This document shows, piece after piece, positions 28,301 to 31,300 of a stretch of DNA of 64,000 bases. Location of the stretch: positions 4,523,501-4,587,500 of the forward strand of contig JAINUG010000007.1 of assembly GCA_029706075.1 (NCBI GenBank), given 5' to 3'. The notes under the pieces were generated by a model, which searched no databases, was not told the origin of the DNA, and worked only from the letters and a program-made list of their open reading frames with translations. Position 1 is the first letter of the stretch. Each line of letters opens with the position of its first letter. A program made the position numbers and the translations under genes. Source of the DNA: Aldrovandia affinis (Eukaryota > Chordata > Actinopteri > Notacanthiformes > Halosauridae).

Positions 28301-31300
28301 TTTTTTATTAAGGCATAAACTCAAGTGTAAAATGGATACTCTCTATTTCCAGGCTCTGCTCAACACGCAAAATAAGCTGCGAACACTGGTCCCCAATTTC
28401 ACCTTTAACCTGGGCTTCTCTGGAAAGTTCTACTACACAGGTAGGAGGGAGAGTGTTAAGAGGTGTGCAGGACTGGTGATGCTCTGTATTGGAGGGTGTG
28501 CTCAATAATTGCTTTGGTTTTCATGTTGTAAATTTGCAAAGTGCATCCATTCGGGTGTTTCATCATGTACAAACAGCATGTTGAGCCTCATATGCTCTAT
28601 ATGTATATTATATATAGAGTTATCTAATTCAATTACCTGTTTTTTGTTACACCATTGTAACAAAAAAACATTGTCGTGTGACTTGCGGACCTTATTAAAA
28701 TGACAAATCCTGTTTTGCTCTTCGTTTGTGCTTTTGTACTGCTGTCATTTGCAGCGGTTCCACAAAAACTCTTATGCAGTTCCTAAGGGCCTGAATGGTG
28801 TAACAAAAAACAGGTCATTGAATTAGAAAACTCTATATATAATATAAATATATTCGGGACATAAGACATTAAATAATGTCCTCTGGGGGGAGATCTAGTT
28901 TGGTGTACTCTAAACTGACAAAAATATAATACCATATGAAACATGGAGATTAATTGTTTGCCATAATGGCCTTGTAAGTCACTTTGAACAAATGCGTGAG
29001 TCAAATGAATAAATGATATAATAAGTAACATAGAAGTAGAGTGGATGGTAGCAGTTGTAATGCTCCTGCAGTGTGATCTTGGTGTGTGTGGTATTCCTCT
29101 GATTGTGTGGAAATAGGCGCTGTGTTGTAGGTGTGTTGAAATGGGTAGATAATGTATTGTATATATGTGTGTGTGAGTGTGTGCGGGTGTGTGAGGGTAT
29201 TATGAGTGCGTTCAAATGACTATATGTGTGTGTGTGTGATATTGCATGATGAGTGTGTTGAAATATGTGTGTGAGGGTATTGTGTTGTGGGTAAATTGAA
29301 ATGGGTGTGTAGGGGGTATTGTTTTTGGGCCGGTATGAGGTTGTGATGGGGATCCTGTCATTGTGGCCCAGGCACCGATGAGGAGGACCGTGGGGACGAC
29401 ACGCTGCTCAGACACAGGAAGGAGTTCTGGTGGTTCCCACACATGTGGAGCCACATGCAGCCGCACCTCTTCCACAATGTCAGCGTGCTGGCAGAGCAGA
29501 TGAGGCTCAACATGCTGTTTGCACAGGTGAGAGACATGCTGCTCATACAGGTGAGAGACATGCTGCTCATACAGGTGAGAGACATGCTGTTTGCACAGGT
29601 GAGAGACATGCTGTTTGCACAGGTGAGAGACATGCTGTTTGCACAGGTGAGAGACATGCTGCTCATACAGGTGAGAGACATGCTGCTCATACAGGTGAGA
29701 GACATGCTGTTTGCACAGGTGAGAGACATGCTGCTCATACAGGTGAGAGACATGCTGCTCATACAGGTGAGAGACATGCTGCTCATACAGGTGAGAGACA
29801 TGCTGTTTGCACAGGTGAGAGACATTGCACAGGTGAGAGACATGCTGTTTGCACAGGTGAGAGACATGCTGCTCATACAGGTGAGAGACATGCACAGGTG
29901 AGAGACATGCTGCTCATACAGGTGAGAGACATGCTGCTCATACAGGTGAGAGACATGCTGTTTGCACAGGTGAGAGACATGCTGCTCATACAGGTGAGAG
30001 ACATGCTGTTTGCACAGGTGAGAGACATGCTGCTCATACAGGTGAGAGACATGCTGCTTGCACAGGTGAGAGACATGCACAGGTGAGAGACATGCTGCTC
30101 ATACAGGTGAGAGACATGCTGTTTGCTCAGGTTTGTAGGGTCAGCATGTCACTGCACTGAGAAGAAGTGCTTTAGTTGGATACGCCACCTGGTAATCCCC
30201 CAATCCCCCCCTTCCCCTCAAAATCACAGCATTTAACCCTGCTCAGTGTCCATGGCAACACCCATGCTCCTCCTCACCGCCTCCCTCTTCCTCTTCCTCA
30301 TCTTCCCCATGGGGCAGGAGCACGGCATCCCCACAGATATGGGCTACGCCGTGGCCCCCCACCACTCGGGCGTGTACCCCGTGCACAGCCAGCTGTACGA
30401 GGCCTGGAAGTCGGTGTGGGGGATCAGGGTGACCAGCACGGAGGAGTACCCCCACCTGAGGCCCGCCCGCTACCGCCGCGGCTTCATCCACAGCGGGATC
30501 CAGGTGAGACGCGCCGAGCCCTCTGCCCCTGTTAGAACCAGAACCGGGCTGAACTACACTTACTAGACCCTATTAGAAACACAAACCGTGACCCATGAAC
30601 CACGACAGAACTATCAGATGCGATAAGCAATTTACAGCCATTTATTCCAACTCCCAGAATGTAATGGACCGGAATGCATGAACTGGGAACTAAAAAGCTA
30701 TGAGGCTTGTGGCTAGGTGTTGTCTATTGCATTTCCTCTCATAGCACAGTCAGGGGAGATTGGTGGATATCGGTTTCCCTTAACACCAAACTGTGCAACC
30801 GTGACTCTCTCAAGTGCACTAAGAGCAGAACTGTGACTCAGCGCGCACACGCACAGTGAAAATCTAATCCAGTTTAGTTCCTCTAACTGTTCTAACATAA
30901 TGTGTGATTTTGTTTTTTTCCTCTGCTACACATCTCCTCTCCCCCTGCCACTCCCACCCCCCATGTATGTGTGTGTGTGCTTTTCTGTGTGTATGTGTAT
31001 GTGTATGTGTGTGTGTGTGTGTGTTTCTGTGTATTGCAGGTTTTGCCCAGACAAACGTGTGGTCTCTTCACTCACACCATCTTCTATAATGAGTACCCCG
31101 GGGGCTCCAGGGAGCTCGACAAGAGCATCCGGGGTGGGGAGCTGTTCCTGACCGTACTGCTCAACCCTGTGAGACTGCGTTTCCCCTTTAATACCCCCTC
31201 TCACACCCCCCTCCCCTTTAACACCTGTATACCTCACCTTTAATACAGCTCACATTAATTTCCCCACTCACTTTAAATGCACACACCCCCATTGACAGCT

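What the first reader, a model, noticed from the sequence alone, without database searches (positions are those of the whole stretch)
29510..30130. A gene-made minisatellite of 26 tandem splice donors at ndst2 exon 3
The 24-bp unit is exactly the last 17 bases of exon 3 plus the first 7 bases of its intron, repeated 26 times without spacer. Every unit therefore presents the same consensus 5' splice site, CAG/GTGAGA. Units are multiples of three through unit 15, so use of later donors would insert 8 to 118 residues of [16 protein letters not shown] repeats in the N-deacetylase region. Unit 16 closes the frame. This could give a ladder of isoforms, a length-variable donor cluster, or simply donor redundancy. 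I know of no described case in an NDST gene.
Basis: seen in the sequence. Interest (0 to 1): 0.9.

Follow-up and report, generated by a model that had tools for sequence, protein, structure and literature searches.

The report
Row of 26 repeated splice sites
In what appears to be a fish, one gene for a heparan-sulfate enzyme has the end of an exon and the start of its intron copied in a row 26 times, each copy carrying the same "cut here" splice signal; this is a rare but already described kind of repeat, and the animal probably mostly just uses the first signal.

Summary
At 29527-30130 a 24-bp unit (last 17 bases of an NDST coding exon plus the first 7 intron bases) is repeated head to tail, giving 26 identical donors CAG|GTGAGAG and a 27th weaker one. 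Only the first donor restores NDST exactly (Pfam HSNSD-CE 57-107, then 108-170). Donors 2-16 would insert 8-118 residues inside the deacetylase domain; after that the frame shifts and stops. The closest paralogue in the same genome has the same exon end but one donor and no array. The structure is a known kind: amphioxus "mirage" minisatellites and the human IFI6 donor minisatellite. It is not alone in this genome: of 40 other donor-motif array loci read, 7 begin exactly at the end of a database-confirmed coding exon (DNase gamma, MEKK4, tenascin/teneurin, SMARCC, BCAT, FKBP, LDH); in 4 of these 7 the units clearly carry the exon tail. Most such arrays break the frame. The excess of CAGGTRAG arrays does not prove that donors are targeted: AAGGTRAG shows none, and a donor-dead word is also over-represented. 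Best reading: a young, tolerated donor mirage spliced mainly at donor 1. An isoform ladder is untested; no transcripts were available.

The parts
29372..29526 (+). NDST (ndst2) coding exon 3 (51 complete codons from 29374; encodes the equivalents of metal ligands H389 and H393)
   Evidence: Pfam HSNSD-CE 57-107/205, E 3.3e-22; PDB NDST1 8ccy 289-338, E 5.5e-22
29527..30130 (+). donor-repeat array (mirage minisatellite), 26 units, each starting with the donor GTGAGAG
29524..29533 (+). first (ancestral-position) donor CAG|GTGAGAG; joins exon 3 to exon 4 without gain or loss
   Evidence: single donor at the same place in paralogue L059
29815..29832 (+). unit 13, 18-bp deletion form, in frame
29881..29897 (+). 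unit 16, 17-bp deletion form that closes the frame for later donors
30066..30082 (+). unit 24, second 17-bp deletion form
30128..30136 (+). 27th, divergent donor CAG|GTTTGT at the downstream edge of the array
   Evidence: predicted U1 pairing -9.1 against -11.1 kcal/mol for the 26
30131..30317 (+). rest of intron 3 with a pyrimidine-rich acceptor region ending ..GGGGCAG|GAG
30318..30503 (+). NDST coding exon 4, starting [23 protein letters not shown]
   Evidence: window 30318-30506: Pfam HSNSD-CE 108-170/205, E 3.3e-32; 8ccy 340-402, E 7.4e-36

Best explanation
It is a donor-type 'mirage': a minisatellite born by tandem duplication of 17 bases of exon end plus 7 bases of intron head at an NDST exon-3 donor, then grown by slippage or unequal exchange to 26 units and kept homogeneous by turnover. 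Because duplication leaves the original donor first in line and intact, the protein survives if the spliceosome commits mainly to donor 1; the other 25 identical donors then lie inside the intron as redundant decoys. The array is tolerated rather than selected. Minor use of donors 2 and 3 (+8, +16 residues) is likely by analogy with IFI6. Shown: anatomy, origin from this exon, absence in the paralogues found, exact protein continuity at donor 1, recurrence of donor arrays at other exon ends in this genome. Inferred: splicing choice, mutational mechanism, neutrality.
For: Array and unit anatomy. Exon 3 and exon 4 abut with no missing profile position (107/108 of HSNSD-CE; NDST1 338, one residue, 340) only if donor 1 is used. 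Three other NDST exon-3 homologues in the genome (4 matches in all) each end in a single donor; TRF on their loci shows only simple repeats. The nearest (L059, 94% aa) ends LNMLFAQ|GTGAGGGAGG. Exon 3 differs from L059 in the way of purifying selection (NG86 dN 0.024, dS 0.75). Recent homogeneous growth: GTGAGAGACAT is identical in all 26 units, with no private point change apart from the A/B dimorphism, one recombinant, three deletion units and the divergent terminal unit. Same-genome recurrence: 7 of 40 donor-motif array loci read start exactly at the end of a coding exon confirmed by Pfam or PDB hits reaching the last or next-to-last residue. Published mirages leave regular splicing intact.
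Against: No transcript seen, so use of donor 1 is inferred. All 26 donors are locally identical and as strong in predicted U1 pairing as the gene's own exon-4 donor (-11.1 kcal/mol each), so nothing in the local sequence forces donor 1; classic duplication experiments (recalled, not looked up; one search found no paper) often favour a downstream copy. The unit happens to be in frame, and the second donor is in frame in 7 of 12 exon-end arrays (4 expected), which leaves room for tolerated or used extensions. Why donors should be hit is not shown: CAGGTRAG arrays are over-represented, AAGGTRAG arrays are not, and the donor-dead CAGCTRAG is. In 3 of the 7 confirmed exon-end arrays the units do not visibly copy the exon tail, so not all are boundary-spanning mirages.
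Confidence: 0.76

Rival explanations
1. Working isoform ladder: donors 2-16 are used at regulated or copy-number-dependent rates, inserting 8-118 residues ([16 protein letters not shown]) and tuning or inactivating N-deacetylation.
For: Frame stays open through donor 16 and donors are identical and strong. IFI6 uses two downstream repeat units as donors. A single-sequence model of the read-through is one long helix, mean pLDDT 88.6, pTM 0.39, so the insert might be structured.
Against: The insert lands inside the catalytic domain at NDST1 417/418. In 10 of 12 exon-end arrays at least one of the first three donors breaks the frame. No array in three paralogues. Single-sequence models of short repeats tend to be helices (recalled), so the model is weak support.
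Confidence: 0.12
2. Splicing attenuator: the row of decoy donors sequesters U1 or yields transcripts that are degraded (donor 17 onward lies past a frame shift and stops), lowering output of the gene according to copy number.
For: Frame shift and stops after unit 16; strong predicted U1 pairing.
Against: No RNA evidence; no unusual folding of the array start (z -0.34); lancelet mirages are reported not to disturb splicing.
Confidence: 0.08
3. Assembly artefact: copy number inflated or units scrambled by assembly of a short repeat.
For: No reads could be inspected; the same gene carries a one-base frame break in coding exon 1 near 25022, consistent with base-level error.
Against: Ordered variants (A/B pattern, recombinant, 17/18-bp forms, divergent terminal unit) are what a real minisatellite shows; donor arrays with other units occur at other exons on other contigs.
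Confidence: 0.04

Closest known systems
Amphioxus 'mirage' minisatellites (Adh3, globins BflGb6/BflGb9, TnC, PGBD5)
   [quoted passage not shown] many units carry splice signals; homogenised inner units with divergent edge units; several genes in one genome. From PMC3087553 (passages and section 16 read) and PMC3902484 (one passage).
   Different: Here a vertebrate-type NDST gene; 26 copies of a short, in-frame unit in which every copy is an identical strong donor. Length instability and splicing were tested there, not here.
[quoted passage not shown]
   Same: Minisatellite with multiple donor sites; downstream units can act as donors.
   Different: Different gene; 12-bp unit and about 26 copies there (recalled). 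Paper not held; seen only as a cited title and one descriptive sentence in PMC4526556.
Internal tandem repeats at exon-intron boundaries of recently duplicated human genes (PMC2812944)
   Same: Variable repeats at exon-intron boundaries altering splicing (abstract and passages).
   Different: About half lie within coding exons, and those at boundaries are described as forming novel introns, not as rows of identical donors.

Membership tests
Mirage minisatellite (exon-intron-boundary tandem repeat) | Repeat unit contains exon end plus intron head with the splice signal | tested here: met
   17 + 7 bases, 26 of 26 units with CAG|GTGAGAG
Mirage minisatellite (exon-intron-boundary tandem repeat) | Lies at a genuine boundary of a conserved gene | tested here: met
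   Pfam and PDB continuity of exon 3 and exon 4
Mirage minisatellite (exon-intron-boundary tandem repeat) | Inner units homogenised, edge units divergent | tested here: met
   Terminal unit F and donor 27 diverge; the inner GTGAGAGACAT is invariant
Mirage minisatellite (exon-intron-boundary tandem repeat) | Length instability between or within individuals | not testable with these tools
   One assembly only; the genome search returned no second close copy of the array
Mirage minisatellite (exon-intron-boundary tandem repeat) | Regular splicing not disturbed | not testable with these tools
   No transcripts available
IFI6-type donor minisatellite | Each unit matches the donor consensus | tested here: met
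   Predicted U1 pairing -11.1 kcal/mol, equal to the exon-4 donor
IFI6-type donor minisatellite | Downstream units used as donors in mRNA | not testable with these tools
   No transcripts available
Exonic coding tandem repeat (protein repeat) | Frame open through the whole array | tested here: not met
   Frame shifts in unit 16 and meets stops
Recursive-splicing (ratchet) sites | Pyrimidine tract plus AG|GT with intron-sized spacing | tested here: inconclusive
   AG|GT present, but only a short tract (TGTTTGCACAG) and 24-bp spacing, too short for an intron (minimum length recalled)
[quoted passage not shown]
   E 1.1e-55 and 1.7e-36 (HSNSD_N, two pieces), 3.3e-22 and 3.3e-32 (HSNSD-CE, exons 3 and 4)

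The most novel reading that the evidence does not exclude
This genome carries a class of separately born donor arrays at coding exon ends (at least eight including this NDST gene, up to 41 donors at a tenascin/teneurin-like exon; at least five with units that copy the exon tail), and in the NDST gene the in-frame array yields a copy-number-dependent ladder of isoforms that varies heparan sulfate sulfation between individuals. The class is supported by sequence; the ladder is the unproven part, and the probability is for the ladder.
Probability: 0.1. Interest if true: 0.85.

Novelty: new member of a known kind. Interest (0 to 1): 0.45.

Why it matters
Twenty-six identical donors in a row before one acceptor is a natural experiment on how the spliceosome chooses among equal 5' splice sites: first-transcribed, nearest to the acceptor, or limited by exon size each predicts a different usage profile, readable from one long-read cDNA run. 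The exon-end arrays at seven further confirmed exons would give replicates with other unit lengths. It also shows the lancelet mirage pattern in what appears to be a vertebrate genome, which bears on the proposal (PMC3087553) that such duplications seed new introns.

Tried and rejected
Genome-wide donor targeting, tested with three-copy patterns (own genome, both strands, against the reversed pattern): CAGGTRAG 3467 against 220; CAGGTGAGT 571 against 59; CAGGTAAGT 134 against 6; AAGGTRAG, another real-donor word, 654 against 637; donor-dead CAGCTRAG 915 against 2, with many of the listed places belonging to one dispersed 28-bp family. Distinct arrays on contigs C1-C224, counted by eye from listings capped at about 100 rows: CAGGTRAG 20 (its list ends inside C224), AAGGTRAG 5, CAGCTRAG 6. 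Single-word counts in 112 kb: CAGGTRAG 12, AAGGTRAG 12, CAGCTRAG 10, reversed CAGGTRAG 8. So the excess is a property of the word CAGGTRAG and not evidence that donors as such are hit. I rejected that claim.

Exon-end status of 40 array loci: 20, 14, 6. Seven are confirmed: L043, L044, L075 by Pfam, L009, L049, L071, L079 by PDB (of these four, three had no Pfam hit and L079 only a sub-threshold one). Five look like exons but are unconfirmed: L041 (sub-threshold coiled-coil hits), L045, L073, L080 (no hit) and L050, which has the same exon as L080. 28 are not at a recognisable coding exon end, including L046/L047 (about 100 bp past a collagen-like exon) and all 6. Only 10 of these 28 loci had a frame scanned by Pfam (one frame stands for both L046 and L047); the others were judged by eye. 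For L042, L050, L074 and L078 the first flanks printed lay inside the array and were read again from the first donor word. Since perhaps a fifth of CAGGTRAG sites are true donors (rough recalled estimate), 7-12 of 40 is no clear enrichment. Exon-tail copying (13 or more of 16 bases before the second donor equal to the exon tail): 4 of the 7 confirmed (L009, L044, L075, L079), not L043, L049, L071 (7, 7, 8 of 16); also L041 and L073.

Folding of the array start: not more stable than shuffles, z -0.34. Look-alike arrays elsewhere: 7 matches besides itself, 65-79% identical. Read-through structure: one helix from a single sequence, not diagnostic. Literature (open-licence PMC only): ndst2 + tandem repeat + splice gave one paper, listing seen only; the rows shown name no NDST case; the search on competing duplicated donors returned nothing.

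Full report
Observation. The array is real in the sequence and exactly as described. TRF gives 29523-30121, period 24, 25.8 copies, score 813. Parsing at each donor gives 26 exact CAG|GTGAGAG sites from 29527 to 30107 and a divergent 27th, CAG|GTTTGTAGGG, at 30131. There are two main unit types, A (13) and B (8), differing by four transitions in five bases; B is the exon's own sequence. The rest are one A/B recombinant, one 18-bp and two 17-bp deletion forms, and a divergent terminal unit. The first eleven bases GTGAGAGACAT are identical in all 26 units. The reading frame of exon 3 stays open through unit 15 and closes after the 17-bp unit 16, so donors 2-16 would add 8 to 118 residues.

Gene context. 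The exon before the array is NDST: Pfam HSNSD-CE 57-107 of 205 and PDB NDST1 8ccy 289-338. The exon after the intron is HSNSD-CE 108-170 and 8ccy 340-402. So only the first donor reproduces the conserved protein. Exon 3 maps to 367-416 and exon 4 to 418-480 of 8cd0; counting along the aligned sequence, its PHMWSH carries 389 and 393, so this chain agrees with the H389/H393 of the NDST1 paper, and the junction falls at 417/418. The paper reports Ca2+ coordination by D320, H389 and H393 in a (beta/alpha)7 barrel and loss of activity in alanine mutants (PMC10864358, passages). An insert at 417/418 is therefore inside the catalytic domain (inference). Exon 3 is 155 nt; intron 3 is 791 nt, of which 604 are array.

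Origin. The own genome (1.22 Gb, 2576 contigs) has 4 matches to exon 3. The nearest paralogue, L059 (94% aa), ends LNMLFAQ|GTGAGGGAGG with one donor; the two others (L060, L061) also have single donors. TRF finds only simple repeats in these three loci. Window and L059 exon 3 differ at 16 of 153 bases, 14 at third positions; NG86 dN 0.024, dS 0.75. The array therefore arose in this copy after the duplication (or was lost in the other, less simply), from this exon's own end. The lack of private point changes points to recent growth or strong homogenisation (inference).

Donor strength. Predicted U1 pairing is -11.1 kcal/mol for the repeat donor, the same as the gene's exon-4 donor, and -9.1 for donor 27. 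0.9% of the 3968 GT sites in the window score as well or better, and that figure includes the 26 repeat donors themselves. The start of the array does not fold better than shuffles (z -0.34). Nothing local separates donor 1 from donors 2-26, so choice must come from position, exon definition or transcription order; none of this could be tested.

Not alone in the genome. A pattern of three CAGGTRAG within short spacing gives 3467 matches against 220 for the reversed pattern. I read the upstream flanks of 40 array loci: 20, 14, 6, with eight loci read again from the first donor word. Seven begin exactly at the end of a coding exon confirmed by database hits that run to the last or next-to-last residue: DNase gamma L009, MEKK4 L043, tenascin/teneurin EGF L044 with 41 donors, and FKBP L075 (all), SMARCC L049, BCAT L071, LDH L079. 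Five more look like exons without a convincing hit (L041, L045, L050, L073, L080; L050 and L080 share the exon). In four of the seven (L009, L044, L075, L079) the units clearly carry the exon tail, as in NDST; in L043, L049 and L071 they do not, so these are rows of donor words starting at the exon end rather than proven copies of the boundary. The units of the seven differ from each other and from NDST outside the donor word (by eye), so separate births are likely. Taking NDST with eleven exon-end arrays (the seven plus L041, L045, L073, L080), the second donor is in frame in 7 of 12, but in 10 of 12 at least one of the first three donors is out of frame.

Limits of the genome-wide claim. AAGGTRAG, also a real-donor word and as frequent singly (12 and 12 in 112 kb), shows no array excess (654 against 637). 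The donor-dead CAGCTRAG has 915 against 2, a larger ratio than CAGGTRAG, though many of its listed places are one dispersed family. The six CAGGTAAGT arrays read were all away from recognisable coding exons. So CAGGTRAG is repeat-prone here for reasons that need not be splicing, and exon ends are hit perhaps no more than their share. What is shown is recurrence and tolerance, not targeting.

Known kind. Amphioxus mirages are minisatellite-like tandem duplications of exon-intron boundaries, reported in Adh3 and globins, with length and somatic instability, and said not to interfere with regular splicing (PMC3087553, passages and section 16); TnC and PGBD5 are added by PMC3902484 (one passage). 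Human IFI6 has a minisatellite providing multiple donor sites (title cited; paper not held), with two downstream repeat units used as donors to make three mRNAs (PMC4526556, passage). Atlantic cod has unusually dense tandem repeats, also in coding regions (PMC5241972, passages), so repeat-rich fish genomes are a fitting background.

Verdict. A donor mirage in an NDST gene, most likely neutral, spliced mainly at donor 1, perhaps with minor +8 and +16 forms. New member of a known kind, unusual for its 26 identical, in-frame donors, and a good natural test of donor choice.

Noticed in passing
window 25022 (coding exon 1 of the NDST gene): One-base frame break: HSNSD_N matches profile 1-121 in one frame and 123-215 in another. 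Either a base-level sequence error or a damaged allele.
   Followed up: partly
L044 (G000:C136:1171600-1176400): A tenascin/teneurin-like EGF exon is followed by an array with 41 CAG|GTRAG donors spaced mostly 36-40 bp, more donors than the NDST array and largely out of frame.
   Followed up: partly
whole genome G000: CAGGTRAG-containing tandem arrays are over-represented (3467 against 220 reversed) while AAGGTRAG ones are not (654 against 637); cause unknown.
   Followed up: partly
G000: C291, C313, C480, C591 and others: Dispersed 28-bp tandem family of the type CAGCTGAGGCY..ACCTACAGRCACACA on many contigs.
   Followed up: no
L050 (G000:C210) and L080 (G000:C735): Two loci with the same exon-like stretch (..CQILTKALSPFCESVDRNPVVRSVVLKLLLKY) each followed by a 21-bp GTGAGTCACTCAAACTCACAG array, some units with CAGCTGAG instead of the donor word.
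   Followed up: partly
window 34214-34239: Another exon donor of this gene..TACCAG|GTGTGTGT.., is the start of a perfect (GT)13 microsatellite: a donor merged with a dinucleotide repeat.
   Followed up: no
L046 and L047 (G000:C137): Two near-identical collagen-like exons, their arrays about 9.6 kb apart on a 31-kb contig, each followed after about 100 bp by a 16-bp donor-motif array of different copy number.
   Followed up: no
window 22351-22581 and 60364-60429: Near-perfect tandem duplications: a 121-bp unit, 1.9 copies, 99% matches, and a perfect 24-bp unit, 2.8 copies.
   Followed up: no
window 16217-16720 and 37127-37603: Open frames that look like Tc1/mariner transposase fragments (QQDNDPKHT.., LNPIE..; likeness recalled, frames).
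   Followed up: no
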